A DNA stretch of 64,000 nucleotides, taken from positions 3,810,771 through 3,874,770 of the forward strand of contig NZ_KV878783.1 of assembly GCF_001890765.1 (NCBI RefSeq). Direction: 5' to 3'. Shown here piece after piece: positions 11,349 through 63,403 of this stretch. How positions within the stretch are numbered: position 1 is the stretch's first letter; the number at the start of each line of letters is the position of its first letter. Origin of the DNA: Spirulina major PCC 6313. Lineage in GTDB: Bacteria > Cyanobacteriota > Cyanobacteriia > Cyanobacteriales > Spirulinaceae. The position numbers and the translations under genes are program-made. The notes under the pieces were generated by a model that saw only the letters and a program-made list of their open reading frames with translations, was not told where the DNA came from and did no database searches.

Positions 11349-13553
11349 TCACGATCGCAATGTCGCTTCAGCGTTGAGTATTTCTATGGCTGGAGTGATT
11401 GTAAAGTAAAACGTCGCCCCTTCTCCCACCACCCCCTTAGCCCAAATTTTACCGCCGTGGCGTTCGAGGATGCGTTGCACAATGGTTAAGCCAATCCCCG
11501 TACCCTCAAATTCACTTTGGGAATGCAGCCGCGCAAAGGTATGAAACAGCTTATCCGCATAGGACATATCAAAGCCAGCACCATCATCTTGGACAAAAAA
11601 GATGGGAACCTGCGCTGAGATTTGACGTTGGCTATAGATATCCGGGTCACGGCATTGGCCAAATTGAATTTGAGACTGCGATCGCTTACTGGTATATTTC
11701 CACGCATTATTAAATAAATTTTCTAAAGCAATCCGTAAAAGCGATTCATTCCCCTGCACGGTTAAATTCGGTTCCAGAATAAACGTCACCTGCCGATCTG
11801 GTGCATTCATTGTTAGCTCTGCGGAAATTTGTTGCGCCAGGGTGCTTAAATCCACCGTGGCTAGGGTTAATTCCATCCGAGTTGAACGGGAAAGTTGCAA
11901 AAGATCATGAATTAGTTGCCGCATTCGACCACAAGAATTCTGAATTTGAACGAGATAGTCTTGGCCTTCCTCATTTAAAACATCACCATATTCTTCCCGC
12001 AACATTTGATTAAAAAATTCAATGTGAGAAATAGGCGTTCGTAAATCATGGGACACAGTGCGAGAAAAAGATTCAAGTTCGTCATTAACATTTTCGAGTT
12101 CAATGGTGCGCTGCTGGAGAGAAACATTTAACGCCTTGATCTGTGCTTCTGCCTTTTTTTGCTTGGTGACATCGCGCCCCACACAAACAAAGTCTTGGGT
12201 ATCATCTTCCGTTTCAATCACACCGCAGGAAAAAGAGACATACAGCACCTGTCCATTCCGTTGCCGACAGATCACCTCTGCTTGAAACTTTAACTGTCCT
12301 TGGGCTAAATTACCGAGAAAGTTTTGATCATCGACGAGCTTACTAATGGGTTGATTAATTAACTCATAGTCCTCATAGCCAAAGAGTTTTTGTGTGGCGG
12401 CATTAATCGTTTTGATCACTCCTGATTTTGTGGTGACGACTAAGGCATCAGCCATGGAGTTGATGATTTGAGTGATGTAGTTTTTGGCGGTTGCTAATTT
12501 TTTGAGGAGGAGTTGAGCTTCATTCGCACTTTGAATCAGGCGTTGTTGAAAGAGCATCCGCTCCGTAGCGTTATTTAATAAAATAATTAGCTTGGCAGGA
12601 TAGCCGATGGTGCGCTTGTGGGGATAGACACTGATATAAAGGTCAAAATAAAGGGGAAACTCGGTCTCTGAAAAACGAGCAATGCCTGAAATTTCATACC
12701 CTTCATGGCGATAGTTCAAGATCTCCGCGAGGATGAGTTCTAAGCCTGCAACTTCTGGAAAACTATCCCGAATATCAATACCTTCTTGAATGGTGGTGTC
12801 GTCTTCGGCATAGCGCTGTACACCGTTGGAATATTCCTGGATGGTGAAGGTGTGGTCTAGGATCACGTAGTCTTGATGGGTGATCGGGGGTTGCAGGAGG
12901 GGGTTTTGGAGATGGCTTTGGGTATCAATGAGCACATCACTGAGCATTTGTTGCATCATGTTGGCTCGATCAATAATTTGATTGAGATAAGCGGTGGTGC
13001 TTGGTTCGAGGGGAACGTGACGGGGTTCAGCGAGGAGAGTATTAAGCTGTTTGCGAATCTGGATTAAGGTTTGGCGGAGGTGATGACTGGCTAGATAGGG
13101 AAATTGACTGAGGGCGGTGCTTTTGAGGTTAACGTTGGAGTTTGAGGGGCCGGGGCGATTTCCCAGTTTGGCGAGGGGATTGGCGGTTGTGGTGAGGGGG
13201 CGGCGTTGGAGATTGTGTTCGATGACTTTGAGGCGCAGCTTTTGTTCTGTGGGGGGGGCAGTGCGGAGGAGATAGTCGTTGACACCGCAGTTGAGGAGAG
13301 TTTGGAGGTGTTGGGCGTTGATGTGATCGAGGACGGCGATCAGGGTGGTGTAGGGGTGGGTTTGACGAATTTTGCGGCAGAGGTTGGCGGCTTGATCGCT
13401 CAACTCGTCTGCCTGGAGGAGAATGAGGGGATAAAATGGAGGGGCTGGCGGCGGACAACCGTGGGATTGAACGGTGATGTGATGCCGATTGGATCGCATT
13501 AATTCGATGAGCGATCGCATGGCAGCATCGTCTCCAATCACTAACACCTGCAT
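11349..13553 (-). CDS. PAS-domain histidine kinase with a degenerate N-terminal receiver
   Basis: A 734-residue soluble kinase. Residues 1-110 have a receiver fold, but the phospho-acceptor region reads ILLQADELSD with Gln at the expected Asp, and the Lys position reads LLRT, so it is probably a pseudo-receiver. A roughly 150-residue input module follows, shared with the cyclases at 54863-56602 and 52795-54855, then a PAS domain ending VCVGRDVT. HisKA has His502 in SHDLRTPIS and HATPase_c has NLFNNAWKY and GTGIGLTI. There is no attached output domain, so a separate regulator is needed. The ATG at 13553 was chosen over an upstream TTG because GAGGA lies about 7 nt before it. Confidence 0.88.
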   Translation of the reverse strand: MQVLVIGDDAAMRSLIELMRSNRHHITVQSHGCPPPAPPFYPLILLQADELSDQAANLCRKIRQTHPYTTLIAVLDHINAQHLQTLLNCGVNDYLLRTAPPTEQKLRLKVIEHNLQRRPLTTTANPLAKLGNRPGPSNSNVNLKSTALSQFPYLASHHLRQTLIQIRKQLNTLLAEPRHVPLEPSTTAYLNQIIDRANMMQQMLSDVLIDTQSHLQNPLLQPPITHQDYVILDHTFTIQEYSNGVQRYAEDDTTIQEGIDIRDSFPEVAGLELILAEILNYRHEGYEISGIARFSETEFPLYFDLYISVYPHKRTIGYPAKLIILLNNATERMLFQQRLIQSANEAQLLLKKLATAKNYITQIINSMADALVVTTKSGVIKTINAATQKLFGYEDYELINQPISKLVDDQNFLGNLAQGQLKFQAEVICRQRNGQVLYVSFSCGVIETEDDTQDFVCVGRDVTKQKKAEAQIKALNVSLQQRTIELENVNDELESFSRTVSHDLRTPISHIEFFNQMLREEYGDVLNEEGQDYLVQIQNSCGRMRQLIHDLLQLSRSTRMELTLATVDLSTLAQQISAELTMNAPDRQVTFILEPNLTVQGNESLLRIALENLFNNAWKYTSKRSQSQIQFGQCRDPDIYSQRQISAQVPIFFVQDDGAGFDMSYADKLFHTFARLHSQSEFEGTGIGLTIVQRILERHGGKIWAKGVVGEGATFYFTITPAIEILNAEATLRS

Positions 13554-13732
13554 AGCTTTTTCCTCGTGTGACAACCCAATTTGTAAATATGCAGTAACCC
13601 TGATGCGATGCGCCTACCTTCTATCATAGAAAGCATCGAGTCTGAACGAATACTACAGAGTGACGTAAATCCCTGTGACGTTGCAAAACTCAATAAAAAT
13701 CCTATGCGTTCCGGAATCAATCGCACCCCCTT

Positions 13733-15336: not shown

Positions 15337-16788
15337 ATGAAGCCCATCGAGATTCCCCCAGCCGTCGAACGAGAGCAACTGAGACAAGCATCATCAGAGG
15401 TGCTGGTGGAACTGGTGTTGCGGCAACAAGAGATTATTCAGCAACTAGTCTGGGAAATAGAGCGGCTCAAGAACAACGCCAACAGCGATAGCGAGAGTTC
15501 ATCGAAACCCCCATCAAGCGACATCCACAAACGCTCAGAACACCAACCCCCAGAAAAAGAGCCACCAAGCCAAGGAAAGCGTAAACCCGGTGGGCAACCC
15601 GGTCATCAGGGAAAAACTCGCAAAGGGTTTGGCAGAATAGACCGCTACGAAATGGTGCGAGCGCAAGTGTGTGGGTACTGTGGGAGCCAAGAGTTGAGCC
15701 TAGTCCCCCGAAAAACGCGCCGCCATGAAGTAGCCGAGTTAATCCAACCCGCCATAGAAGTAGTGGAGTATGAGCAGCAGTGCTGCTGTTGTAGCCGATG
15801 CGGACAGGAAACATGGGGAGAGTTACCGCCGCCAGTGCTGGGAGGTCAAAGCTTAGGAGCCGGACTGCAATCCCTGTTGGTGTGGTTGGGGAACTACGCT
15901 CACATGAGCTATGAAAAGCAGCAGGAATTCCTAGAGGAACTGGGGAATATCACCGTGGGAGTAGGGACATTACAAGCGACCAATGAAAGGGCATCCCAAA
16001 GCGTTAAGCCGACAGTAGAGGAACTGGGAAACTGGGTGAAACACCAAGACTACGCCCAAGTGGATGAAACACCATGGCTAGTCAAGGGAGTGAAAGAGTG
16101 GATGTGGGTAGTGTGCGGGGTGGGTTTTTGCCTCTTCCACGCCGCTGATACTCGTTCAAGGGCGGAATTAGAGACCCTATTAGGTCGAAGCTTTGATGGT
16201 GTACTCGTCTCTGATGACTTCAGTGTGTACAACGGTTATGAGGTGAAAGCCCAGCAGAAGTGCTTGGCTCATCTAAGGCGGCACTTCAAGAAAGTCTGCA
16301 AGCTCAGGCATGGAAAAAATCCAGAGTTGGCGAAGGCATTCCTGGATTTGATTGACACAGCCTTTGAGCAGCATCGTCAGTGGCGTGAAACCGAGGATGG
16401 GGCTGCCTATCATCAATGGGCGGCGGGCTTTATCTATGAGGTGAAGGCGGCTGTGGAGCATTGGCTCCCCCTGGCTGGGCATGAGGCGGGCTTGTTATTG
16501 CGCTCTCTACGCGATAAGGCAAATCAGTGGTGGTATTTCCTGTCCCATCCAGAAATTCCCCCGGATAATAATCGTGCGGAACGCTCGTTGCGGTTGGCTG
16601 TAACCAAGCGTAAGGTTTGTGGTGGCTCGCGTTCGATGGCAGGTTTTGCCCAGACGGCAAGGTTACTGAGTGTGATTCAGACTTGTCGGACTCAAGGGCG
16701 TTCGGTGTTGAGTTTCTTGAAACAAGCTTTGATGGCGACGGCTTCTCCTGAGCAAGTCTCCATGCCTTCCCTCATCCCTGCTACCTGA
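15337..16788 (+). CDS. IS66-family transposase
   Basis: A 483-residue DDE transposase that appears full-length. It has the N-terminal leucine-rich helix, the Ser/Pro-rich linker with GGQPGHQGKTR, and a zinc-binding region with CGYCG and CSRCG. The catalytic core shows Asp in QVDETPW, Asp in LVSDDFSVY and Glu in PDNNRAERSLR, the usual IS66 triad. The C-terminal helical tail (QTARLLSVIQTCRTQG) is present. The accessory proteins TnpA and TnpB of classical IS66 are absent, as in many single-gene relatives. The stop codon TGA (16786-16788) lies inside the right inverted repeat. Nothing suggests inactivation. Confidence 0.95.
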   Translation: MKPIEIPPAVEREQLRQASSEVLVELVLRQQEIIQQLVWEIERLKNNANSDSESSSKPPSSDIHKRSEHQPPEKEPPSQGKRKPGGQPGHQGKTRKGFGRIDRYEMVRAQVCGYCGSQELSLVPRKTRRHEVAELIQPAIEVVEYEQQCCCCSRCGQETWGELPPPVLGGQSLGAGLQSLLVWLGNYAHMSYEKQQEFLEELGNITVGVGTLQATNERASQSVKPTVEELGNWVKHQDYAQVDETPWLVKGVKEWMWVVCGVGFCLFHAADTRSRAELETLLGRSFDGVLVSDDFSVYNGYEVKAQQKCLAHLRRHFKKVCKLRHGKNPELAKAFLDLIDTAFEQHRQWRETEDGAAYHQWAAGFIYEVKAAVEHWLPLAGHEAGLLLRSLRDKANQWWYFLSHPEIPPDNNRAERSLRLAVTKRKVCGGSRSMAGFAQTARLLSVIQTCRTQGRSVLSFLKQALMATASPEQVSMPSLIPAT

Positions 16789-49920: not shown

Positions 49921-51160
49921 CTCCCCCGTTTAGAAAACGGGGGATTCTGGGATCAAACAGCAATAGCAGGCAACGCCTGTCTGACATCACCTAACCCAAT
50001 GGCTGAAGCCCCAGCCACTTTAATATTCATCGCCGCATTCTCATCCCGGTCATTCTCTGCCGAGCAACTGGGACACCGCCAATGGCGAGTCTCTAAATCC
50101 AGATGCTCCAAAATATGACCACAACTTGAAACAGTCTTGCTCGAAGGGAACCAGCGGTCAACATAGATCACCCGCTTCCCCTTCTTCGTCGCCACCCACT
50201 CCAGGATTTGCAGAAACTCCCGAAACGCCAAATCACTCACCTTACGCCCCCAAAGCCCCTGCATCGCCTTGAGGTTCAAGGTTTCAAAACACAGCACATC
50301 AAACTGATTCGTCAGTTGATGGGCTAACTTCCAAAACCAGTCCCGCCGTCGATGGGCAATATCTTCATGCTTGCGGGCTAAGTTTAATCGGGCACGTTCT
50401 CGATGGGCTGAACCCTTTTGCTTACGGGACAACTCTCGACTCGCTTTGCGAACCGAGTTAAGTGACTGCTTGAAGAACAAGGGGGCATCAATCTTGAATC
50501 CCTCAGAACAGGTCAGAAACGTCTTAAGTCCAAAATCAAAACCAGCAATGTTACCTGTCTCGGTTTTGACTTGGGGTTCTGACAGGGTATCTACCGTGAC
50601 AATCATGAACAGTTCTCCCAAGGGAGTTCGTTTAATCGTCACGGTCTTGACCTTGCCCTCAATGGGGCGAGAGTTCCAATATTGATAGACTTTGTTCCCA
50701 ATCCTGACCCGGTTGCCACCGAGGAATTTGTACCCAGCTTGCTTGAGGGTGAAGGATTTGTATTTTCGGGTTTTCTTGAAGTTGGGCGGTCGAACGCTTC
50801 TATCTTTGTGTTTGAAGAACAGTTGATAGGCTTTCTCAATTCGTTGGCAGATATCCTGTACGGCTTGAGAACCCACCTGCAACCACCAGGGGTTCCGTTT
50901 CCGAAGCTTGGCGATGTGTTTTTGCAGTCGGGCGCAGTTCAAGTGCTTGCCCCACATTCGGTAGTACCGTTTGTGGAGGGCAACACAATGGTTGTAGATA
51001 CGCCCTGCGGCATTGATTGTCCGCTTGAGGTATCTATTCCGCTTATGCTGGTAGAGCTTGAACTTGAGCGTTTTCATGGTTGCTATGATACCTCGGTATC
51101 ACGGCTGAATAAATTCAGCCCTTCGCTTATATCCCCCGTTTGGAAAACGGGGGCTTTACG
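49921..51160 (-). mobile_element. TnpB-only IS200/IS605-type element (edges approximate)
   Basis: Hairpins with the same 9-bp stem (CCCCCGTTT/AAACGGGGG) flank the tnpB gene at 49923-49943 and 51133-51153, as expected for the subterminal palindromes of IS605-group elements. Two more palindromes precede tnpB: TGATACC-TC-GGTATCA (51086-51101) and GGCTGAAT-AA-ATTCAGCC (51103-51120). No tnpA (Y1 transposase) is present, so movement would need one in trans. The exact tips were not determined. The left end lies within about 10 bp of the stop codon of the Uma2 gene. Confidence 0.75.
49953..51077 (-). CDS. tnpB: TnpB-family RNA-guided nuclease, incomplete zinc finger
   Basis: 374 residues. TnpB proteins are RNA-guided DNA nucleases that cut the empty site and help the transposon persist. 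The RuvC-like triad is complete: Asp181 in GFDFGLK, Glu265 in CFETLNL and Asp345 in NDRDENAAMN. The zinc finger is not: the family has Cys-x2-Cys...Cys-x2-Cys, but here the first position is Val316 (KTVSSCGH), leaving Cys319, Cys335 and Cys338. The start ATG (51077) gives the usual MKTLKFKLY. The guide RNA would overlap the 3' end of the gene and the right-end hairpin. Confidence 0.9.
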   Translation of the reverse strand: MKTLKFKLYQHKRNRYLKRTINAAGRIYNHCVALHKRYYRMWGKHLNCARLQKHIAKLRKRNPWWLQVGSQAVQDICQRIEKAYQLFFKHKDRSVRPPNFKKTRKYKSFTLKQAGYKFLGGNRVRIGNKVYQYWNSRPIEGKVKTVTIKRTPLGELFMIVTVDTLSEPQVKTETGNIAGFDFGLKTFLTCSEGFKIDAPLFFKQSLNSVRKASRELSRKQKGSAHRERARLNLARKHEDIAHRRRDWFWKLAHQLTNQFDVLCFETLNLKAMQGLWGRKVSDLAFREFLQILEWVATKKGKRVIYVDRWFPSSKTVSSCGHILEHLDLETRHWRCPSCSAENDRDENAAMNIKVAGASAIGLGDVRQALPAIAV

Positions 51161-52196: not shown

Positions 52197-52709
52197 TTAG
52201 GTGTGGTGCATCATTTCGCGGTAACACCAGCGGACGAGGCTGAACCCGGCGATGAATTTGATCACTTCTAAACCCCAGTAGCTGAGTTGCATGGTGAGCA
52301 TCGAGCCGGAGAAGGGGTTGGCGGTGGGGGCGAGCCAATCGAGGTGGATGCCGACGCTGCTAAGGAGGGGGGTGAGACCGTAGGTGTAGAGGAGGGCGAT
52401 CGCAAACAACACCCCTGCCGTCACCACAAATAACCGTTCTTGATGCTGGGTGAGGCTATGGCTTGACCAGAGAGCTAGGCAAGCAGTGAAGACACAGGCT
52501 GCGCAAATCAGTTCCAGATGATTGAAGGCTTCAAAGAGAACATACCCCGCACTGGCGAAATCGCTTTGCATCATCATGCCAGAGACATAAAGACTAGGAA
52601 TGACAACACCATCGAGGAGTAAGCTGCCGCTCAACCAAAAGCCGAGGGTAAATAAAATGAGGGCGGGCCAATTCAGGCGAGAAAGAGAAGGAATAAGACC
52701 TGAGCGCAT
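52197..52709 (-). CDS. Four-helix membrane protein, DUF4149-like
   Basis: 170 residues with four membrane helices (about 13-35, 60-82, 92-112 and 135-157). The segments GSLLLDGVVIPSLYVSGMM and AGYVLFEAFNHLELICAA resemble DUF4149/TMEM205-type proteins, which have no established biochemical function. It is on the same strand as the adenylate cyclase operon, 85 bp downstream, and could be its last gene, but this is not certain. No catalytic motif was seen. Confidence 0.6.
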   Translation of the reverse strand: MRSGLIPSLSRLNWPALILFTLGFWLSGSLLLDGVVIPSLYVSGMMMQSDFASAGYVLFEAFNHLELICAACVFTACLALWSSHSLTQHQERLFVVTAGVLFAIALLYTYGLTPLLSSVGIHLDWLAPTANPFSGSMLTMQLSYWGLEVIKFIAGFSLVRWCYREMMHHT

Positions 52710-52794: not shown

Positions 52795-54855
52795 TTAGGC
52801 GGGTTCAGAGTTTGCAGGGGGGCGGTGATCATGGAGTAAATAGGTATTCATTTGGCCTTTTCCTTTGATCGGAATCACACCCCGTGGGCTGAGAATATAT
52901 TGATTTTTGAGCCGATGATAGATGGTTTCGGTGACTTGAATGTGACCCGGTAAGCCTTGGGATTCCATGCGGCTGGCGATATTGACGGTATCGCCCCACA
53001 GATCATAACTAAATTTTGTTGTCCCGATCACTCCCGCCACTACAGACCCGGTATTCATGCCAATGCGGAGGTCAAAATGTTTCGGGGTGGTCTGGTTAAT
53101 GCGTTTAATAATTGTTTGCATTTCGAGGGCGACGGTGGCGATCACTTCCACATGATCGCCACGGGGGGTGGGGAGTCCGGCCACCATCATGTAGGCATCG
53201 CCAATGGTTTTGATTTTTTCGACACCGTATTTGGCACTCAAGGCATCAAATTCTGAAAAAATGACGTTGAGTTGTTCGACGAGTTCAATGGGGGGGAGGT
53301 TGGCGGCGAGTTGGGTAAAGCCGACGAGATCGGCAAAGAGGACGGTGACTTCTTCAAAGCTGTCGGCGATGGTGGTGATCTGGGCTTTGAGGCGTTCGGC
53401 GATCGCTTGAGGCAAAATGCTCAAGAGTAAATGTTCCGTTTTTTCCTGTTGTTGGTGCAGGGCGATTTCGGCTTCCTTGCGTTTAATGAATTGTCCGAGT
53501 TGGTTACCCGTAGCTCCCATCATTTGCAGCAAGTTGTGATCCGGGGGGAGATGTTCCCGCCGAAAAAAGGTCATCACCCCCAACATTTCACTGCCACTCT
53601 GTAGCGGAAAGGCTAAGGCGGTATTCAAGCCGGACTGCACGATGAGGGATTGCGCCCCAAAGTCTGGATCGGTTTGCAGGGTTGTGATCCATTGAGGGCG
53701 ACCGGCGGACCAGACGCGCCCGACAAACCCAATGCCTTCGGCATTGTCCACCAACACCCTGCCCTGTAAAAAGGATTGAAACGAGGTGTTCGGGCTGGAC
53801 TCTGCCCAAAAATCAACTCGCTGTAGCCGGGGGACGGGGGCAGGGCAGGGGTTCCCATCTTGATCCCAGGTGGTGTGTTCAAGGTCTTGGGCGATGGGTT
53901 TGCGTTCGTCTGTGGTGTAGGGAATCCAAAATTCCCCCACATCCCAGTTGAGGTTTTCGCCGATCGCTTGGAGAATGCGGTGGGTGGCGACTTCGAGGGA
54001 GATGGATTCGGAGAGGATACGGGCGATCGCATACTGGGCGGCGAGGCGCTGCTGGGTGCGATGGCGTTCGGTAATGTCGCGGCCAATGTAGACAATATCT
54101 TGGGTGAGGCGGTGATCCGATTCCCCTTGGGCTTCGGTTTGAATCAAGGAACAGGAAAACGCTACGTTGAGTTTAGCGCCCTGTTTGGTTTGGCATTCCA
54201 CTTCGATATTGCGCGACAGGACTCCCTCGGTTTGAATAGCGGCGGCAAGTTCGGCAAAGAGGGGATCGGCATTCAAAATTAATCGTGACAGGGGCTGATC
54301 AATCAGTTCGGCTTGGGTGTAGCCAAAGAGAATTTCGGTGGCGTGGTTAATGGTTTTAATCGTCTGATCAGGTGTGGTGACAATCAGAGCATCCGCGATC
54401 GCCGTCACGATCCGATCAATGTAGTTTTTTGAAGCCGTTAAAGCATTGAGGAGCAAGTTCGACTCATTGGTACTCTGCACTAACACCTGTTCAAGGTGCA
54501 TTTTTTCCGAGACATTCTCAATAAAAAGAATCAAATAGGGGTCAGCGGCGGCGGTGCTGGGGGTTGCCTGAACATGGAGATCTAAATAGAGATTTTGACC
54601 GTCAGCAGTGGTGCGCGTGATCCCGTTGAGGGCGAAATGGGGCATCTCGTTGACAGCGATCGCCATAAACACATCTTCGCACCCATACAGTTCCGGAAAA
54701 TGATCCCGAATATCCGTGTGCAGCAGCGGCACAGAGATATCCCGCCAATGATCTAAACTCGCCGTCGGAGAATGATTAACAATCTGCCCAGCCCCATCAA
54801 ACACGACATAGCAAATATGGGGCGGCACAATCAATGTCTGATCAAAAACATTCAT
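52795..54855 (-). CDS. Class III adenylate cyclase with N-terminal input module, PAS and GAF
   Basis: 686 residues, soluble. Residues about 1-150 are an input module shared with the diguanylate cyclase upstream and with the kinase at 11349-13553. A PAS domain follows (to VYIGRDITER, about 270), then GAF (about 290-450) and a C-terminal cyclase homology domain. That domain has both metal-binding Asp (LFADLVGFT, KTIGDAYM), the Lys that favours ATP over GTP (EKIKTIG) and the Asn/Arg transition-state residues (DTVNIASRM). The product is therefore expected to be cAMP. The ATG at 54855 lies 7 bp after the stop of the diguanylate cyclase gene. Confidence 0.9.
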   Translation of the reverse strand: MNVFDQTLIVPPHICYVVFDGAGQIVNHSPTASLDHWRDISVPLLHTDIRDHFPELYGCEDVFMAIAVNEMPHFALNGITRTTADGQNLYLDLHVQATPSTAAADPYLILFIENVSEKMHLEQVLVQSTNESNLLLNALTASKNYIDRIVTAIADALIVTTPDQTIKTINHATEILFGYTQAELIDQPLSRLILNADPLFAELAAAIQTEGVLSRNIEVECQTKQGAKLNVAFSCSLIQTEAQGESDHRLTQDIVYIGRDITERHRTQQRLAAQYAIARILSESISLEVATHRILQAIGENLNWDVGEFWIPYTTDERKPIAQDLEHTTWDQDGNPCPAPVPRLQRVDFWAESSPNTSFQSFLQGRVLVDNAEGIGFVGRVWSAGRPQWITTLQTDPDFGAQSLIVQSGLNTALAFPLQSGSEMLGVMTFFRREHLPPDHNLLQMMGATGNQLGQFIKRKEAEIALHQQQEKTEHLLLSILPQAIAERLKAQITTIADSFEEVTVLFADLVGFTQLAANLPPIELVEQLNVIFSEFDALSAKYGVEKIKTIGDAYMMVAGLPTPRGDHVEVIATVALEMQTIIKRINQTTPKHFDLRIGMNTGSVVAGVIGTTKFSYDLWGDTVNIASRMESQGLPGHIQVTETIYHRLKNQYILSPRGVIPIKGKGQMNTYLLHDHRPPANSEPA

Positions 54856-54862
54856 AGATGGG

Positions 54863-56602
54863 TTAGCAGATGGATGACCAAAGCACTGCACAGTTTCGAC
54901 CATGGGACTTGGCAGCATAGAGGGCTTGGTCAGCGTGCAAAATTAACGCTTGGGAGTCGCTGTAGGGTTTAGGCTGCTCCGTTGCCCCCCCCAGACTGAG
55001 GGTAACATGGTCTGTAATGGGAGAACGCACATGGGGAATTTGAAGATTAGAAATGGCCTGTCGAATGTTTTCCATCAGATGCATTAATCCTTCTTTCTGG
55101 GTATTCGGCAACAACACAATAAATTCTTCGCCGCCGTAACGCGCCACCACATCCGCCGGTCGTTGAACGGACTTGCGTAGCATGTGGGCAATTTTGACCA
55201 GACAGCGATCGCCCTCTGGATGACCGTAATAATCGTTATACGCCTTGAAATAGTCCACATCGGCAAAAATAATCGAGAGCGACGTAGATTCCCGGATCGC
55301 CAATTGCCATTCTCGGCGTAAATGCGCCTCAAACGCCCGCCGATTCGCCAACTGCGTCAACGCATCCGAATCCGCCTGAGCTTGCAAGGCCTCATTGGCC
55401 TGCTGCAACTGTCGATACAATTCCGCTTGATCAATGGCAATCGACACCTGATCCGCCAATTGCCGCAACAGATACAGTTCCTCTGATGTCCAGGGACTGG
55501 ACGATCGCTGGATCACCAAACTGCCCCAAAATTGAGATTGGTTAAAGAGGGTAAAAATGAGATCTTGCTCTTCCCAGGGAATTGGAGGCGCGAGGTCATC
55601 ACAATGCAGGGCTTGAAGGGTGAGATGGGAGTTGTGCCAATGGAGACGATAGCGATGGCCGATGTAATTATCCTGGCAATCGAGGCAGGCCATGTGCAAC
55701 ACTTTGCCCTGAATATGATTCTCCGCTTTCAGGATAAAGACGCGATCGCAATGGAGCAACTGCTGCACCATCTGCACCGTCGTCTGCAACACCTGATCCA
55801 ACTCCAGCGATTGGCGAATATTGCGCGTGATCTCCCCCAAGAGGCGATCGTGCTGGCTCTGACGCACCATCCGCGCCTCCGTCCGTTTCCGCAATGTCAC
55901 ATCCCGCCCAACGCAGACATATTCCGGTGCCACCGAATGACCCATCCTTAACTGTGTACAGGAAAACGCCACCATTAAACGCTCCCCCCGCCGCGTCACA
56001 CAGATCACCTCCACATCCCGCCCCAACAACCACGCCGGAAATTCACTGCGGGCCTTCTGACCCGTAATCACCCTCGGAAAATCCGCAAAAAGGATGGTCA
56101 ACGGTTGATGAAGTAATTCAGCCGCCGTCCAGCCAAACAATTCTTCGGTGGCCTTGTTCACATACTTCATCCGTCCGGCCGTATTCGTCACAATCAGCAC
56201 ATCACTGATCACCTGCATCACTTGATCAATATAGCTTTTGGCCCTCGACAACCGATAGAGAGCAAGCTCAGCCTCTTTCGCCACCTGACCAAGTTCCTGC
56301 TTCAGAATCATTTTTTCGGTGGTATCACACACCATCACCAGTAACTGGGGAATTGTGGCCTGGGGATAGGGCATCAGGGACAGGTCAAAATATCGAGAGG
56401 CTCGTTGGATACCTTCGATTTCAAAATGGGAGCATTCTCCCTGAATAATCGTGATCATCAATTCTTCTAATCCAATTAATTCGGGTAAAACATTCCGAAT
56501 ATCACCATTGAGACGGGGTTGAATCTCTTCACTGAGTAGATCGTGTAGATCGAGAGAAAGCTCTTGAATTTTCCAGTCAGCATCACAAATCAAGTAGTCC
56601 AT
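54863..56602 (-). CDS. Diguanylate cyclase with input module, PAS and GAF
   Basis: A 579-residue soluble enzyme that should make c-di-GMP from two GTP. The N-terminal ~140 residues are the shared input module (DIRNVLPELIGLEELMITII), followed by PAS (ending YVCVGRDVTLRK), GAF (about 250-395) and a GGDEF domain. That domain is intact: metal-binding FADVDYFKAYND, active site RYGGEEF, and an inhibitory I-site RPAD placed five residues before it. Start ATG at 56602. It is the middle gene of a GTPase - diguanylate cyclase - adenylate cyclase operon, 32 bp after the GTPase gene. Confidence 0.93.
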   Translation of the reverse strand: MDYLICDADWKIQELSLDLHDLLSEEIQPRLNGDIRNVLPELIGLEELMITIIQGECSHFEIEGIQRASRYFDLSLMPYPQATIPQLLVMVCDTTEKMILKQELGQVAKEAELALYRLSRAKSYIDQVMQVISDVLIVTNTAGRMKYVNKATEELFGWTAAELLHQPLTILFADFPRVITGQKARSEFPAWLLGRDVEVICVTRRGERLMVAFSCTQLRMGHSVAPEYVCVGRDVTLRKRTEARMVRQSQHDRLLGEITRNIRQSLELDQVLQTTVQMVQQLLHCDRVFILKAENHIQGKVLHMACLDCQDNYIGHRYRLHWHNSHLTLQALHCDDLAPPIPWEEQDLIFTLFNQSQFWGSLVIQRSSSPWTSEELYLLRQLADQVSIAIDQAELYRQLQQANEALQAQADSDALTQLANRRAFEAHLRREWQLAIRESTSLSIIFADVDYFKAYNDYYGHPEGDRCLVKIAHMLRKSVQRPADVVARYGGEEFIVLLPNTQKEGLMHLMENIRQAISNLQIPHVRSPITDHVTLSLGGATEQPKPYSDSQALILHADQALYAAKSHGRNCAVLWSSIC

Positions 56603-56634
56603 AAATGGAGATAGGATTGGCTAGAGAAAGAGCA

Positions 56635-57168
56635 TCATGGATCAGCTAAGATTGCAGTGGCTAATTGTTTAAAAATCACATTCACAGCTTGACCGGTTTT
56701 CGCAGAGGTGGCGTAGGTGTCAATCACACGCGGATTATGCCGTTGCAGTGCATACTTATCCAGAAGAGTTGCCAGGAGAGTGGGAGTCACCAAATCGGCT
56801 TTGTTGAGGGCAATGATGATGGTTCCTTTTGGGTTGATCTTGACGAAAAGATCGACATGGTTTTGGAGATGAACGAGGGTGTCATCGCGCTTGACATCGG
56901 CAACGATAATCGCGCCTTTGGCCCCTTGGAGATAGCTTGGGGCGATCGCTTTAAATTGGGTTTGCCCTTCAATGTCCCAAATCAAGAGTTCCACTTGACG
57001 GGCAGCATTGTCGGCAGTGGCATCTACTTCGACTAGCTTCCGCGAGAGCTTTACCCCCACGGTGGACAGATATTCATCACTAAATTGATCATCGACAAAC
57101 CGTCGAATTAGACTCGTTTTTCCAACACTAAAATCTCCGACCAAACAAATTTTTTTTGAAATCGCCAT
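56635..57168 (-). CDS. Ras/Rab-like small GTPase
   Basis: A 177-residue single-domain GTPase. All G motifs are readable: G1 GDFSVGKTS, switch I Thr (LSTVGVKL), G3 WDIEGQ, G4 NKAD and G5 TSAKTG. It belongs to the bacterial Rab/Roco-like branch of the Ras superfamily rather than to Era or Obg. No lipidation cysteine at the C-terminus, so it is probably cytosolic. It is the first gene of an apparent operon with a diguanylate cyclase and an adenylate cyclase. A GTP-dependent switch controlling one or both cyclases is the natural hypothesis. The ATG at 57168 is used. Confidence 0.9.
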   Translation of the reverse strand: MAISKKICLVGDFSVGKTSLIRRFVDDQFSDEYLSTVGVKLSRKLVEVDATADNAARQVELLIWDIEGQTQFKAIAPSYLQGAKGAIIVADVKRDDTLVHLQNHVDLFVKINPKGTIIIALNKADLVTPTLLATLLDKYALQRHNPRVIDTYATSAKTGQAVNVIFKQLATAILADP

Positions 57169-57210
57169 CAAGTTTTCTGATATTTTATGGGTTTTATGAC
57201 TGGGTATGAG

Positions 57211-57361
57211 CTAGTTGACTGAAAAAATTAGCCAGATCCCGGAAAGCCCTCACCCTAGCCCTCTCCCTAGGGGAGAGGGAACTGGAAAAATGGATGGGCT
57301 CCCCTCGCCCTCTAGGAGAGGGGTTGGGGGTGGGGGCTATCAACTTTTTTCGGTCAATCAG
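57211..57361. repeat. 151-bp MITE with 9-bp target duplication
   Basis: The ends CTAGTTGACTGAAAAAATTAG and, inverted, CTGATTGACCGAAAAAAGTTG match at 17 of 21 positions. The direct repeat GGGTATGAG flanks the element exactly (57202-57210 and 57362-57370). Inside are C/T-rich inverted blocks (CCCTCTCCCTAGGGGAGAGGG). No coding frame. It is inserted in the gap upstream of the GTPase operon. Confidence 0.85.
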
Positions 57362-57401: not shown

Positions 57402-60400
57402 TCACGATTCTGCTTCAGGGGTGATCAGTTCAAAGCGGGCGCAACGACTTAACCAGGCGGCTTCGGTTTTGGTGACTCCGGGGGGGGCTTCGAGGGTTGT
57501 GGCTTCTTCGAGTCGATCCGAATCAATGCCTTGGGCTGCGATCGCATCTTTGACCACCGCTGCCCGCTGAAACGATAACTCCCGGTTTTGATTGCGTTCG
57601 CCACTTTCATCCACATGCCCCGTAATCCGCACCCGGAGGTCTGGATTATTGCGCAAAAATTCGCTAATCGGGACGATTTTATCCGCAATTTCTGTGGCAT
57701 TGAGGTCGGCGGAGTCCCGATCAAAATAAATCCGACCCGCTAGGGCTTGGGGTAACAGATCATCGGCATCCACTTTGGGAATACCCGGCAGGGCATTGAA
57801 GGCTTCGAGAATGTCTTGGCGATCGCCGCGATCGCGGTAACTCCCCGTCAGCACCACCCCATCCGGATGATAGGACGCTCGAATATCAACACCCGGATAG
57901 CGATTGAGCAAAGCCGTCACCGTTTGGATCATCGTCGCCACATTCACCGGATCGGGCGGTACATCCACGATCTGAATCTGATTCTCAACGGTACGATTTG
58001 GCGCGAGGTCTTGAGCGATCGCCCCCGCCCGCTCCTTAAACTGCTCCGACGGCACACGCCCGCTCAGACTCACCGCTTTCCCCTCCACATCCGACACCAG
58101 AGGCGTATAGGCCACCCCATCCAACTCCGCCGTCATCGCCGCCGTAATTTGGCTGGATAAGCGGTGATTTAAAAAGCCCCGCACTTGGAAATAAAGCCAC
58201 GGAATCACAATCAACGCTGCGATCGCCCCCACCAACACCAACAGAGTTGTGGGTGATCCTCCCGTCTGCTTTTGCACCGTCGATTGGCCCAGCTTCGCCA
58301 GCTTCGCCGACACATCCTCCGGCACCGTATCCGGATCGCCATCAAACTCCTCAATCAACGTGCCATACTGTTGCAGCAATCCCGCCAACGTCTTCCGAAT
58401 CTTCTTCACAAATGCAGGCGGCGGACTGCCCTTCACCACCACCGCCAAGTAGCAATACCCCGCCACCTCCAAAATAATCCGCGCATCCCCATACTCAATC
58501 TCACTCAATTCTGAAATCGTCCCCGTTTGCGCAATGCAATCATTCACAAAACTACGAATCGCCGTCAGCATCCCCGCCACCATATTCGATTCCAAATGGT
58601 GCTCATGCTCCGGTTGCAATTCCGCAATCACCAGCCCCGATGCCTTATGAATTAAAAAAATCGCCTGCACCGTCACCGGGATCGACTCTTTCAAAATTAA
58701 CTCCGCTTCGCTCACCCCCTGCATCCGCGCCCGGACTTTCCGGGTCAACCCATCCACACTAAACGCCGTTTCCACCTTGGCATTAATCGCATTAATTGCC
58801 TCACCCATATAACGCGCCACCGTACTCCCAATCACGGGATAGAGCGCATCAACCATCGAATCGCGTTCCAATTCAATTTGATTTTTCATCGCACGACCAA
58901 TCGTCGGGCCCAGGGATGTCGCAATGGCATCCCGTTCGAGGCGCACCTGTTCTTGAATCGCTGAGGCCACCTCCGGGCCGATCGCTTTCGCAATTCGTTT
59001 AGGATTGTGCTGGATTTGCTGCTCAATGGCCAAGGGCACAAGATCTCCCAACGCCTTCGCCATCGCATCACGATTCTCATGGGCACGCTCCGTGATCATC
59101 TCATCCAAAATCGGCGTGGCCATGGCTCGCACCATGTCCTGAGACGTACCCACCTTCATCTTGAGCAACTGCACCATCAACGGCACGAGGGGATTAATCA
59201 TGTCCGTCGGCTCGTAGACCTGTTTTTCGAGGGCCGCCACTTTGTCTTCAAGCCGGGCAAGAGCACCTTCTTCGATGGCGATCGCTTCATCCAGGGGTGG
59301 GTTTAAGGCGGCTAGTGGTGCAGGTTCATCTAGGGGTGGGTTCGATGCCGCCGCCGGAGAATCCTCTAGCGGGGGTTCGATTTCGGTGGGTTGGGGGTCG
59401 GGGGTTGCCTCTGACTCGCTAGGCGGCGGGGATTCGGAACCCACTAACCCTAACGAGGCCAGCAGTTCATCCGGATCGGGCCAGACGATGGGGTCAGCAT
59501 CAGCCTCTTGGCTTTCGGGTTCTGGCTTGGCGGTTTTGGGGGTGGGAAGAGGGTTATTGTCGAGGAGAAACTGCCGAATGTCTTTGAGGGGGTCTTGAAT
59601 GGTATCGGATGGGGCGCGAAAGAGTTCCGCGAGGGAGGCTTCTGCGGATGGTTGGGATGGGGTTGGGGAGGCTTTGGGGGAGGATTGGGGGCGACGGGGC
59701 GGTGGCGGTGGCGGTTTGCGTAAGACGCGCTTGCGGACGGGGGGGGCAGCGGCTGGGGGTGTGGTGGGGGGCGCGGGGTTCATTAACTCGCGTAATTGCT
59801 GCTCTAGTTCGGCTTCGAGAGATTGCACGCGGGAAACTGAAGCGCGATCGCGCGGCTGAGACTGGCCATTTTCTAGGGGCGGCGCATCGACTTCATTGGG
59901 CAAAATCATCGCCGCAAAGTCTTGGAGGGCGTATTCGATTTCCTCCTCAAAGCTTTTGGGCGTGGCGGGGGGGATCTCGTTGGCCTCGAATCCGTCCGCT
60001 TCCCCAGGATCTGACGGCGCGATCGCCTCTGGAGTGGGGTCAGGAGTCTCAGACGCGATCGCCTCTGGAGTGGGATCGTCAAGGTGGGCAAGATCGGGTT
60101 CGGGCGGTGCGTCCGATACCGGGCGATCGCGCTCCTCGGCGGCTGTGCTGTCCTCTAATGCGATGGGTGCGAGGGTTTCCGGTTCTGGGGGGGATTCCTG
60201 TGCTGGTTCGGGGGGAGGGGTTGAAGTCGTGCGATCGCGCTCCTCCACTGCCGTGGGTTCCGGCGGGGGGTCTGGCTCTATCACGTCCTGGACAACATCC
60301 GACAGTTCCCCAGGATGGCCATTCTCATCACCTTGCCCCTGGGCTTGATCGAACACTAGGCCGTCGATCCCCAACATGGCATTAATCTCAGCCGCCGACA

Positions 60401-61127
60401 CCGTCGGAATCCCTGTGAAATCATCCGCATCCAAGGATGCGATCGTCGTTTCCGATGACTCCATCGCCGCTGGTGGGATCAACGTATCGTAGTCCGCCGC
60501 CAACAGATCCAACTCCGTGGCATCATCATGACCTTCCTCCTGAGGCGATCGCCCGATATTGAAGGTATCCACCAACAAATCCATCACATCATTAATCTCC
60601 TGATCCGAGGCCTCCGCTGCCTCCACGGGAGACGGATCATCAGCCGGGGCAGATTCAGAGGCCGGCGTTACCACGGGGGGCGGTGGCGGGGATGCTTCGG
60701 TGTGGGGAGTGGCATCATCCTGCATTGCCACCGGTGCTGGGGACGGTTGGGCAGAGGAATCAATGGGCTGAAACTTGCTAATCCGTTGGGTTAGCGTCGC
60801 GGCGGCATTTTCGTCAATGGTTTCAACATCGTCAGGGTCACGGCCCAGCGATCGCGAATCATGGTGGGTCAGCAGTTCATCCAAATCGATCAGCAGTCCT
60901 TTAAAGAGATCCTCTGTAACCTCCAAATCATCCGATGGCGGGTCTTGGGCATCTGGGATCGGCTGGCTCACCGGCTCCACCGGGGGGCGAGCAGCCTCAG
61001 GGGACGATGGCGGCACGGACAATGGCTGCTCCGTCTCAGTGGAGTCTTCCCACGGATCAGGAATTGGAGCAAAGTCGTGAGGGGAGTGATCCGAGTTGGA
61101 ATATTGTTCAGAACTCATACCCACCAT
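57402..61127 (-). CDS. Large OmpA/BON-domain protein with acidic N-terminal region
   Basis: 1241 residues. The first ~620 residues are low-complexity, rich in Pro, Glu, Asp and Ala, and probably disordered. A coiled-coil and helical region follows (ARLEDKVAALEKQV, about 620-870). One membrane helix is at about 958-982 (LLVLVGAIAALIVIPWLYF). Outside it are a BON-type domain (about 995-1115) and a C-terminal OmpA peptidoglycan-binding domain (GRIYFDRDSADLN ... ITGHVDESG). It could link the inner membrane to peptidoglycan. The ATG at 61127 is chosen; 61118 is also possible. The TPR membrane gene at 61322 is upstream on the same strand. Confidence 0.82.
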   Translation of the reverse strand: MVGMSSEQYSNSDHSPHDFAPIPDPWEDSTETEQPLSVPPSSPEAARPPVEPVSQPIPDAQDPPSDDLEVTEDLFKGLLIDLDELLTHHDSRSLGRDPDDVETIDENAAATLTQRISKFQPIDSSAQPSPAPVAMQDDATPHTEASPPPPPVVTPASESAPADDPSPVEAAEASDQEINDVMDLLVDTFNIGRSPQEEGHDDATELDLLAADYDTLIPPAAMESSETTIASLDADDFTGIPTVSAAEINAMLGIDGLVFDQAQGQGDENGHPGELSDVVQDVIEPDPPPEPTAVEERDRTTSTPPPEPAQESPPEPETLAPIALEDSTAAEERDRPVSDAPPEPDLAHLDDPTPEAIASETPDPTPEAIAPSDPGEADGFEANEIPPATPKSFEEEIEYALQDFAAMILPNEVDAPPLENGQSQPRDRASVSRVQSLEAELEQQLRELMNPAPPTTPPAAAPPVRKRVLRKPPPPPPRRPQSSPKASPTPSQPSAEASLAELFRAPSDTIQDPLKDIRQFLLDNNPLPTPKTAKPEPESQEADADPIVWPDPDELLASLGLVGSESPPPSESEATPDPQPTEIEPPLEDSPAAASNPPLDEPAPLAALNPPLDEAIAIEEGALARLEDKVAALEKQVYEPTDMINPLVPLMVQLLKMKVGTSQDMVRAMATPILDEMITERAHENRDAMAKALGDLVPLAIEQQIQHNPKRIAKAIGPEVASAIQEQVRLERDAIATSLGPTIGRAMKNQIELERDSMVDALYPVIGSTVARYMGEAINAINAKVETAFSVDGLTRKVRARMQGVSEAELILKESIPVTVQAIFLIHKASGLVIAELQPEHEHHLESNMVAGMLTAIRSFVNDCIAQTGTISELSEIEYGDARIILEVAGYCYLAVVVKGSPPPAFVKKIRKTLAGLLQQYGTLIEEFDGDPDTVPEDVSAKLAKLGQSTVQKQTGGSPTTLLVLVGAIAALIVIPWLYFQVRGFLNHRLSSQITAAMTAELDGVAYTPLVSDVEGKAVSLSGRVPSEQFKERAGAIAQDLAPNRTVENQIQIVDVPPDPVNVATMIQTVTALLNRYPGVDIRASYHPDGVVLTGSYRDRGDRQDILEAFNALPGIPKVDADDLLPQALAGRIYFDRDSADLNATEIADKIVPISEFLRNNPDLRVRITGHVDESGERNQNRELSFQRAAVVKDAIAAQGIDSDRLEEATTLEAPPGVTKTEAAWLSRCARFELITPEAES

Positions 61128-61321
61128 AGTGTTTGGCAAAAACAATAGCGTCGTGACATCGCCAAAGGCTCAACATCATGAAGCTACGTTCATGGTAGTG
61201 GAGAAGTTTCACTAGCGACAAGCAAAATATTTAGAGGTACAGCGGCGTGAAGCTGGCATCTACGGGGATCGGGCACTGGCATTGATTCCATGGGTTGAAA
61301 CATTCAATCAACTCGCGTGGC

Positions 61322-61999: not shown

Positions 62000-63403
62000 A
62001 TGGCTTACCCCGCATTGCTCACCCTCCTATCCCGCACCCTGCGCCGGATTTTGAGTGCCCTAGAACAGCGATCGCTCGCCCCCGATCACACCTATGAGCA
62101 ATGGCAATACAGCTTTTTTCGGCGGCGGCTGTTTCTGGTGTTCGCCATTTCCCTGACCATTCTGTTTTGCATGACCACGCCCCGATTGGTGCAGAACATG
62201 ATTACCAGTCAGCCCCTCCCCGGCTGGTGGTTTACGGATCTTTGGGTTGAAATCAGCTTAATTACAAACCTCATTCTGCTGCGCTTGAGCCACCAAAATT
62301 GGCAGATTAATCTCATTTTTCTGGGCTATTCTGGCTCGATTAACCTAGTGGAACAACTGGCCGAAGCGGCCATGGGGGGGCGGCAATTTGATATTTTAGA
62401 TGACTTTTTTAACTGGGTGCTGGTCTTCTTTTTGCAATCCACCTTAATTCCGGTGCGATGGCAGTTGCATGGTTTATGTCATCTCCTCACCTATGGCCTG
62501 TATTTTGCGATTAAATGTGCGTTTGCGATCGCCACCGGACGCATGGTGATGTGGTATCCGGAAGAGTGGACTTCGCCGCCGAGTTGGATTTTTACGCTGA
62601 GTATGGTGTCCTTTGTGGCGACGCTGTCGGTGTATTTATTTGAACGCACGGCCAAAGCGGAATTTGCGGCCCAAACGGAAATTCGCCGCGCTTATCAAAA
62701 ACTCACCATTGAACAGGAGCGATCGGAAGGATTACTGCGCAATATTTTGCCCGATCGCATCGCTTGCCGCCTCAAAAATGACCACCAAACGATCGCCGAT
62801 ACCTTTTCTGATACGACGGTTCTATTTGCGGATATTGTGGGGTTTACGGAGCTATCGAGTCAGATTTCCGCCCATGATCTCGTTGAACTTTTGAACAGTA
62901 TTTTTTCGCGATTTGATCAGCTTGCAGCCCACCATAATCTAGAAAAAATCAAAACCATTGGGGATGCCTATTTAGTCGTAGCCGGTTTACCCAATCCCCG
63001 CGAGGATCATAGTGACGTGATGGCAGAAATGGCCCTAGATATGCAGCGGGTTTTAGTGGAGTTGAATGGGGAAACGGGACGGGATTTAAGCCTGCGGATT
63101 GGGATTCATTCCGGGACGGTGGTGGCGGGGGTGATTGGCTTAACGAAGTTTGCCTATGATATTTGGGGGGATACGGTGAACACGGCGAGTCGGATGGAAT
63201 CCCATGGTGTGCCGGGAAAAATTCAAGTTTCGGAGGTGGTTTATCATCAGTTAGCGGCGCGTTACGATCTTGAGGCACGGGGGATGATCGCGATTAAAGG
63301 GAAAGGCGAGATGATGACGTATTTTTTACGATCGCGCCGCTACGAGTTGCCCCCCGCCGCCGCTCCCCAAATTGCCCCGCCCCAATCCCTACATCACGAT
63401 TGA
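62000..63403 (+). CDS. Membrane-anchored class III adenylate cyclase
   Basis: 467 residues. About five or six hydrophobic segments occupy residues 45-220. A short helix (EIRRAYQKLTIEQERSEGLLRNILP) then leads to the catalytic domain. All key residues are present: metal Asp in LFADIVGFT and TIGDAYLV, the adenine-selecting Lys in EKIKTIGD, and Asn/Arg in DTVNTASRMES. The product is expected to be cAMP. The catalytic domain is a clear paralog of that at 52795-54855, but the input is a membrane module rather than PAS/GAF. The stop lies 3 bp before the hydrolase start, so the two genes are likely co-transcribed. Confidence 0.92.
   Translation: MAYPALLTLLSRTLRRILSALEQRSLAPDHTYEQWQYSFFRRRLFLVFAISLTILFCMTTPRLVQNMITSQPLPGWWFTDLWVEISLITNLILLRLSHQNWQINLIFLGYSGSINLVEQLAEAAMGGRQFDILDDFFNWVLVFFLQSTLIPVRWQLHGLCHLLTYGLYFAIKCAFAIATGRMVMWYPEEWTSPPSWIFTLSMVSFVATLSVYLFERTAKAEFAAQTEIRRAYQKLTIEQERSEGLLRNILPDRIACRLKNDHQTIADTFSDTTVLFADIVGFTELSSQISAHDLVELLNSIFSRFDQLAAHHNLEKIKTIGDAYLVVAGLPNPREDHSDVMAEMALDMQRVLVELNGETGRDLSLRIGIHSGTVVAGVIGLTKFAYDIWGDTVNTASRMESHGVPGKIQVSEVVYHQLAARYDLEARGMIAIKGKGEMMTYFLRSRRYELPPAAAPQIAPPQSLHHD

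What the first reader, a model, noticed from the sequence alone, without database searches (positions are those of the whole stretch)
52795..57168. Operon joining a Ras-like GTPase to a diguanylate cyclase and an adenylate cyclase
On the minus strand a small GTPase, a c-di-GMP synthase and a cAMP synthase follow each other with gaps of 32 and 7 bp. All three have intact catalytic motifs (GDFSVGKTS/DIEGQ/NKAD; RYGGEEF with I-site RPAD; two metal Asp plus Lys). Bacterial Ras-like GTPases are best known from polarity and motility control. Pairing one with both second-messenger enzymes suggests a switch that couples GTP state to cAMP and c-di-GMP levels. The coupling is inference from gene order.
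Basis: partly seen in the sequence, partly recalled or inferred. Interest (0 to 1): 0.68.

Follow-up and report, generated by a model that had tools for sequence, protein, structure and literature searches.

The report
Bacterial Ras switch with cyclase outputs
In a Spirulina-like cyanobacterium, a small Ras-type switch protein sits between a cell-wall-anchored membrane protein and two enzymes that make the signals cAMP and c-di-GMP; comparison across cyanobacteria suggests one switch that plugs into interchangeable signalling outputs through a shared docking domain.

Summary
In detail: three minus-strand genes (GTPase, GGDEF diguanylate cyclase, class III adenylate cyclase), gaps 32 and 7 bp, catalytic residues intact. 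Directly upstream lies a 1247-aa OmpA/BON membrane protein; both cyclases begin with the same PAS-fold N-terminal domain. This is a derived form of the 'Group 1 Rup' small-GTPase neighbourhood described computationally in 2014 (PMC4316618). In 112 non-redundant loci, the OmpA protein is upstream in 105 and an N-domain effector downstream in 85, carrying a histidine kinase (53), adenylate cyclase (37), GGDEF (14) or PP2C (3). GTPase-DGC-AC occurs in 8 loci, in more than one GTPase clade. In a phylum-wide sample the N-domain occurs in 15 of 16 genomes with the GTPase and 0 of 101 without. New here: the OmpA protein's 'unknown' cytoplasmic domain is predicted to be longin-like (Z 14.4 to Sec22b), a fold used by eukaryotic GTPase regulators; adenylate cyclase is a frequent output. 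Likely mechanism: the wall-anchored longin protein sets the GTPase state, and the GTPase docks on the shared N-domain to gate each enzyme. Coupling is inferred, untested. The window copy lacks the coiled-coil gene, and its DGC N-domain is highly diverged.

The parts
57402..61145 (-). OmpA/BON membrane protein, 1247 aa: long acidic/proline-rich N-terminus, helical region, longin-like domain, one TM helix, BON, OmpA
   Evidence: Pfam OmpA 1.4e-12, BON 4e-11; homologue upstream of the GTPase on the same strand in 105 of 112 loci
58266..58679 (-). longin-like domain of that protein (predicted cytoplasmic)
   Evidence: AlphaFold model; VIA-align Z 14.4 to Sec22b longin, 126 residues, 2.5 A; the 50 listed rows are longin-fold proteins by my reading of their titles
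58182..58244 (-). transmembrane helix between longin-like and BON/OmpA parts
   Evidence: hydropathy maximum, residues 968-988
57205..57345 (-). dispersed palindromic repeat inserted between OmpA gene and GTPase
   Evidence: 37 places in the genome including itself, many partial; folds at -63 kcal/mol, z -3.3; median distance of the two genes in 105 loci 9, end to start, here a 233-bp gap
56635..57168 (-). Rup-like small GTPase, 177 aa from ATG
54863..56602 (-). diguanylate cyclase: N-domain + PAS + GAF + GGEEF with I-site
56174..56602 (-). N-domain (PAS fold) of the diguanylate cyclase, strongly diverged
56603..56638 (-). in-frame ATG overlapping the GTPase stop, followed by TAG at codon 6; lines up by eye without gap with the start of the DGC of L040
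52795..54855 (-). class III adenylate cyclase: N-domain + PAS + GAF + CHD
54364..54855 (-). N-domain (PAS fold) of the adenylate cyclase
   Evidence: model pLDDT 86; PAS hits
11349..13574 (-). third N-domain protein in the window: N-domain + PAS + histidine kinase by eye, 741 aa, not next to a GTPase
   Evidence: N-domain match; ORF

Best explanation
This is a wall-to-cytoplasm G-protein relay of the Group 1 Rup kind with two second-messenger outputs. An inner-membrane protein, anchored to peptidoglycan by its periplasmic OmpA domain, carries a cytoplasmic longin-like domain that regulates the nucleotide state of the Ras-like GTPase. The GTPase docks on a PAS-fold N-terminal domain shared by its effectors, and through the following signalling helix, PAS and GAF domains gates a GGDEF diguanylate cyclase and a class III adenylate cyclase in parallel. 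SHOWN by sequence: gene order, domain content, intact catalytic motifs, shared N-domain, conservation and co-occurrence. PREDICTED: longin-like and PAS folds, membrane topology. INFERRED: peptidoglycan binding (from the OmpA family), that the longin domain acts on the GTPase, that the GTPase binds the N-domain, the sign of regulation, and the physiological signal.
For: OmpA/longin gene upstream in 105 of 112 loci, N-domain effector within 1.5 kb downstream in 85 of 112. N-domain in 15 of 16 GTPase-bearing and 0 of 101 GTPase-less genomes in a phylum sample, Fisher 5e-18; longin domain 15 of 16 versus 0 of 101. In 59 relatives 34 have both, 5 GTPase only, 3 N only, 17 neither, Fisher 7.5e-8. 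The same N-domain is fused to HK, AC, GGDEF and PP2C outputs. Longin-like fold. In G009, G021, G031 and G136 N-domain proteins encoded away from the GTPase also carry AC (three) or HK (one) outputs.
Against: No physical or biochemical evidence for any contact. Co-occurrence counts are not corrected for phylogeny. 27 of 112 loci have no N-domain effector within 1.5 kb downstream on the same strand; 3 of 59 genomes have the N-domain without the GTPase; G149 has GTPase and N-domain but no longin region at 1e-6, and G077 GTPase and longin but no N-domain. The longin model has moderate confidence (mean pLDDT 61), and no longin model appears among the 25 of 62 weak Pfam families shown. The DGC N-domain is the longest branch of 129, and its ancestral start seems lost. 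A structured repeat and one terminator-like site (57405-57390, chance-level scan) lie between the OmpA gene and the GTPase here.
Confidence: 0.6

Rival explanations
1. The effectors act on the GTPase, not the reverse: the N-domain supplies a catalytic Gln in trans (the GAP idea of PMC4316618), and the enzymes report or reset the switch.
For: Two near-invariant Gln in the N-domain (124 of 129 and 126 of 129); the G3 Gln is missing in 86 of 112 GTPases; the 2014 paper suggests provision in trans and points to the Gln of the output proteins.
Against: The window GTPase has its own G3 Gln. The two Gln lie on the helix after the PAS fold, where a coiled-coil role is as likely. Fusion to four different outputs fits an effector-docking domain better.
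Confidence: 0.15
2. Co-transcription only: the cyclases answer to ligands of their own PAS and GAF domains and do not touch the GTPase.
For: Both enzymes carry PAS and GAF domains; all coupling is inferred from sequence.
Against: N-domain presence follows the GTPase across the phylum, also where the genes lie apart; output swapping around a constant GTPase and N-domain.
Confidence: 0.15
3. Only the adenylate cyclase is still coupled here; the diguanylate cyclase is a late, decaying or retargeted member.
For: Neither same-genus genome (81 and 82% complete) shows an N-domain DGC; DGC N-domain branch 2.17 against 0.35 for the AC; in-frame TAG at codon 6 of the start that lines up with L040.
Against: GGEEF, I-site, both Gln and the PELIG.E core remain; the order recurs in 7 other loci.
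Confidence: 0.25

Closest known systems
Group 1 Rup small-GTPase neighbourhood (Wuichet and Sogaard-Andersen 2014, PMC4316618; sections 16-18 read, figures and supplement not seen)
   Same: Ras-like GTPase, TM + OmpA protein with an 'unknown' domain, output enzyme with a conserved N-terminal region containing an invariant Gln
   Different: Window GTPase keeps the G3 Gln; coiled-coil gene absent at this locus; two outputs, one an adenylate cyclase (the sections read name DGC/PDE fusions and HKs); the longin-like fold of the OmpA protein's domain is new here
MglA/MglB and actinobacterial conservons
   Same: Small GTPase with a roadblock-type partner, a fold related to longin (small GTPases bind roadblock/longin dimers in a conserved orientation: PMC10933270, passages seen)
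   Different: Longin-like rather than MglB-like nearest match; partner is membrane-anchored with an OmpA domain; no MglB-type Pfam match among the seven neighbouring proteins scanned
E. coli RdcA/RdcB-DgcE (PMC6510439, abstract and outline seen)
   Same: A GTPase directly activates a multi-PAS diguanylate cyclase
   Different: RdcA is dynamin-like, the target is a MASE1 domain; the abstract mentions no adenylate cyclase arm
Yeast Ras-adenylate cyclase (recalled, no call)
   Same: Ras-type GTPase proposed to control an adenylate cyclase
   Different: Different docking domain; unrelated pathway context

Membership tests
Group 1 Rup system | Ras-like G1-G5 motifs resembling eukaryotic Ras (Rup rather than MglA) | tested here: met
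   Eight positions checked (P-loop Lys, switch I Thr, Asp and Gly of DxxG, Asn, Lys and Asp of NKxD, Ala of SAK) are each invariant in 112 of 112; the 60 listed best PDB sequence matches are mostly Rab-type GTPases. Placement in the published tree not tested
Group 1 Rup system | G3 glutamine absent | tested here: not met
   Window has Gln; in 112 loci, window included: H 52, Q 26, S 21, N 5, E 4, R 2, K 2, so the feature varies within the clade
Group 1 Rup system | Neighbouring protein with conserved domain, TM helix and OmpA | tested here: met
   57402-61145
Group 1 Rup system | Neighbouring coiled-coil protein gene | tested here: not met
   Cluster of a ~209-aa helical, coiled-coil-like protein (by eye) in 80 of 112 loci (81 by profile), not at the window locus; present at the second copy in the same genome
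Group 1 Rup system | Output protein with N-terminal region holding an invariant Gln | tested here: met
   Both window cyclases have both conserved Gln of the N-domain; that these are the Gln of the published logo is my inference, the figure was not seen
Group 1 Rup system | Output is typically a DGC/PDE fusion or histidine kinase | tested here: inconclusive
   GGDEF without EAL, plus adenylate cyclase; 'typically' is not strict
Longin domain | Longin fold | tested here: met
   Predicted model only: Z 14.4, 126 residues, 2.5 A to Sec22b; pLDDT of the region 46-82 by blocks of ten
Longin domain | Sequence match to a longin model | tested here: inconclusive
   No longin or roadblock model among the 25 of 62 Pfam families shown for 56 members
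Class III adenylate cyclase | Two metal Asp, Lys + Asp substrate pair, Asn and Arg | tested here: met
   residue roles recalled
Diguanylate cyclase | GG(D/E)EF and I-site RxxD | tested here: met
   I-site role recalled
MglA/MglB polarity system | Adjacent MglB-type roadblock gene | tested here: inconclusive
   No such Pfam match in the seven neighbouring proteins scanned at 1e-3; MglB appears only as a weaker fold match of the longin-like domain (3t12_C, rank 37)

The most novel reading that the evidence does not exclude
Cyanobacteria carry a modular G-protein relay in which a peptidoglycan-anchored membrane receptor uses a longin-type domain (the fold of eukaryotic Rab/Rag regulators) to set a Ras-like GTPase, and the GTPase drives swappable effectors (adenylate cyclase, diguanylate cyclase, histidine kinase, PP2C) through one docking domain: a bacterial counterpart of Ras-to-adenylate-cyclase signalling, with wall state as input.
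Probability: 0.35. Interest if true: 0.85.

Novelty: new variant of a known kind. Interest (0 to 1): 0.62.

Why it matters
The 2014 survey states that no Rup GTPase had been characterised experimentally (PMC4316618), and none of the results listed by my eight literature searches is a later functional study of one. The shared N-domain and the longin-like domain turn a list of neighbours into a testable input-switch-output chain, with a defined docking domain that can be assayed with four kinds of enzyme. If true it would be a direct route from cell-wall state to cAMP and c-di-GMP in cyanobacteria, and would show longin-type GTPase control in a bacterial envelope protein.

Tried and rejected
Rejected: an MglA-type polarity module (motifs and neighbours fit Rup; no MglB-type match among the seven proteins); a recent tandem duplication of the two cyclases (their N-domains are 34% identical, and the AC one groups with AC of the same family); a GTPase-DGC-AC order unique to this strain (8 of 112 loci).

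Led nowhere: sequence searches of the longin region and the N-domain against PDB sequences gave nothing significant (best E 0.13 and 0.14); a Pfam scan of 56 OmpA-protein segments at E<=1 gave only scattered weak hits. Promoter and terminator scans were near shuffled expectation: 7 against 4.8 and 4 against 5.7. GTPase-effector complex prediction was not possible with the tools: single chains only, two jobs, both used.

Counts: 131 regions were surveyed (50, 80, the window). L089 has no stand-alone GTPase ORF (its match is a 1008-aa protein) and dropped out, leaving 130; duplicates (the same contig under a G handle and a named locus) were removed by GTPase core sequence, leaving 112. Output labels come from phmmer with one query domain each at E<=1e-5, so misses are possible. 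Alignments used part of what was at hand: A1 28 of 50 GTPases, A2 56 of 71 OmpA proteins, A3 30 of 56 N-domains, A4 40 of 56, A5 24 of 80. In the phylum and 35 of 117 genomes are listed row by row; the tool states that the others have no match. Genome tallies include the window's own genome.

Literature: the listings (10 to 20 rows each) showed no paper joining a Rup GTPase to an adenylate cyclase, and none describing a longin domain in the Rup OmpA protein. A 2023 review of cyanobacterial second messengers (PMC10117731, word search of the text only) has no occurrence of 'GTPase'. The library lacks most subscription journals, and the supplement of the 2014 paper was not readable.

Full report
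WHAT IS THERE. On the minus strand lie a Ras-like GTPase (56635-57168), a PAS-GAF-GGDEF protein (54863-56602) and a PAS-GAF class III cyclase (52795-54855), with 32 and 7 bp between them. Pfam support is strong, and the catalytic residues are present. The Lys + Asp substrate pair is that of adenylate rather than guanylate cyclases (residue roles recalled).

THE REST OF THE SYSTEM. Upstream on the same strand lies a 1247-aa protein with C-terminal BON and OmpA domains after one TM helix. Both cyclases start with the same ~160-residue domain, with a conserved PE.xG.E core and two Gln four residues apart, each kept in 124 of 129 and 126 of 129 of the aligned domains. Pfam at E<=1e-3 named neither the body of this domain nor the central part of the OmpA protein.

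CONSERVATION. Over 112 non-redundant loci the OmpA protein lies upstream on the same strand in 105, at a median distance of 9 from end to start (80 of 105 within 60); of the other 7, L083, L124 and L148 start within 1 kb of a contig end. At least one N-domain protein follows within 1.5 kb on the same strand in 85 of 112: histidine kinase at 53 loci, adenylate cyclase at 37, GGDEF at 14, PP2C at 3, EAL at none. HK with AC occurs at 14. On a GTPase tree (quick method) the AC+DGC label needs 6 changes, and strongly supported branches force at least 2, so the pairing arose or was lost more than once. On an N-domain tree of 129 rows the outputs need 22 changes against 57.5 in shuffles: outputs are inherited but repeatedly swapped. 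Neither same-genus genome (81 and 82% complete) shows a DGC: G002 has OmpA protein, GTPase, AC; in G001 the contig ends inside the effector, whose N-domain groups with that AC.

CO-OCCURRENCE. In a phylum-wide sample of 117 genomes 16 have the GTPase (1e-15); 15 of these have the longin region (1e-6) and 15 the N-domain (1e-8). None of the 101 others has either (Fisher 5e-18). The two misses are G149 (no longin region) and G077 (no N-domain). In family f8, G149 is the only genome with a match to GTPase or N-domain (a two-gene GTPase + N-DGC unit). In 59 closer relatives: both 34, GTPase only 5, N-domain only 3, neither 17 (Fisher 7.5e-8). These tests ignore phylogeny. The exceptions are G027, G050, G053, G054, G056 (GTPase only; G050 and G056 carry a divergent type) and G033, G041 (61% complete), G055 (N-domain only; the G055 gene appears split). 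In G009, G021, G031 and G136 N-domain proteins encoded away from the GTPase carry AC (three) or HK (one) outputs; in G031 the coiled-coil gene lies beside it.

STRUCTURE. The OmpA protein's cytoplasmic part (residues 641-985) was modelled from 56 sequences: mean pLDDT 61; elements 185-292 have topology b-b-a-b-b-b-a. Foldseek's best matches are adaptor sigma chains, Ykt6, Sec22b and Rag/Ragulator chains (best E 7e-5), with MglB at rank 37. Realignment gives Z 14.4 (126 residues, 2.5 A) to the Sec22b longin domain, 13.2 to Ykt6, 11.7 to a Lokiarchaeal roadblock-longin protein, and 10.7 to the GEF Mon1-Ccz1. The tool's note gives 7 to 8 as the typical best Z for models without a clear match. So the 'conserved domain of unknown function' of the 2014 paper is probably a longin-like domain, a fold family whose dimers bind small GTPases (PMC10933270, passages). 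Sequence searches did not reach this. The N-domain (30 sequences, pLDDT 86) is a PAS fold with a long C-terminal helix; the conserved Gln lie on that helix (best Z 10.7).

RELATION TO THE KNOWN. PMC4316618 (sections 16-18 read) describes Group 1 Rup GTPases next to a coiled-coil protein, an OmpA protein with an unknown domain, and an output protein whose N-terminal region has an invariant Gln, the output being typically a DGC/PDE fusion or an HK. The cyanobacterial loci here match: a ~209-aa helical protein, coiled-coil-like by eye, precedes the OmpA gene in 80 of 112. The window genome has two systems. Locus L081 is canonical (coiled-coil, OmpA protein, GTPase, N-HK). The window copy belongs to a clade of ten same-family GTPases (SH-aLRT 85); the coiled-coil gene was found at none of the ten (at L046 the contig ends just upstream of the OmpA gene, so it could not be seen). 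Their OmpA proteins are longer: 1030-1289 residues in ten, against 696-876 in the nine measurable ones of the second-system clade. A second coiled-coil homologue lies elsewhere in the genome. The published statement that Group 1 lacks the G3 Gln holds for 86 of 112 here but not for the window. Two group features are thus not met at this locus; I call it a derived variant, not a canonical member.

DETAILS OF THIS COPY. A 141-bp stretch between OmpA gene and GTPase is a dispersed repeat (37 places in the genome including itself) that folds strongly (1 of 200 shuffles as stable), so the 233-bp gap is probably an insertion that may separate transcription of the two; one terminator-like site also lies at the end of the OmpA gene (57405-57390, chance-level scan). 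The DGC reading frame continues upstream to an ATG that overlaps the GTPase stop, as in L040, but has TAG at codon 6; translation probably starts at 56602, losing 12 residues before the first strand. The DGC N-domain is the longest branch in its tree, 2.17. The DGC may therefore be less tightly coupled than the AC.

MECHANISM. I propose: wall-anchored longin protein -> GTPase state -> docking on the shared N-domain -> cAMP and c-di-GMP. The first two arrows, the direction and the sign are inference. The rival in which the effector acts as GAP through its Gln is kept open. Nothing here shows what physiology is controlled; a motility role would be extrapolation from MglA.

Noticed in passing
window 11349-13574 (-): A third N-domain protein (N-domain, PAS, histidine kinase by eye; 741 aa), not beside a GTPase; N-domain frames of similar length occur away from the GTPase in other same-family genomes.
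   Followed up: partly
window 57205-57345: Dispersed palindromic repeat with 37 places in the genome, inserted inside the otherwise tight OmpA-GTPase pair.
   Followed up: yes
window 62000-63403 (+): Another class III cyclase, with a hydrophobic N-terminal region by eye, divergently transcribed next to the system; Pfam shows only the cyclase domain.
   Followed up: no
L090 (G000:C2:1842000-1845000): Adjacent cyclase and GGDEF genes without an N-domain or GTPase hit in the fetched stretch: a second, independent AC-DGC neighbourhood in this genome.
   Followed up: no
L086, L087, L088: Divergent GTPase + longin/OmpA protein loci; in L086 and L088 followed by a ~339-aa weak cyclase match with a different N-terminal domain that (L086, by eye) ends in a similar Gln motif.
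   Followed up: partly
L182 (G149): Two-gene GTPase + N-domain-GGDEF unit in a genome where no longin region was found at 1e-6.
   Followed up: no
window 49953-51077 (-) and 15337-16788 (+): Transposase-like ORFs (TnpB-like and IS66-like by eye, recalled, not searched; ORFs).
   Followed up: no
window 52197-52709 (-): Small hydrophobic protein just downstream of the cyclases, with a homologue after the AC in L040 (7e-36) and no Pfam match.
   Followed up: no
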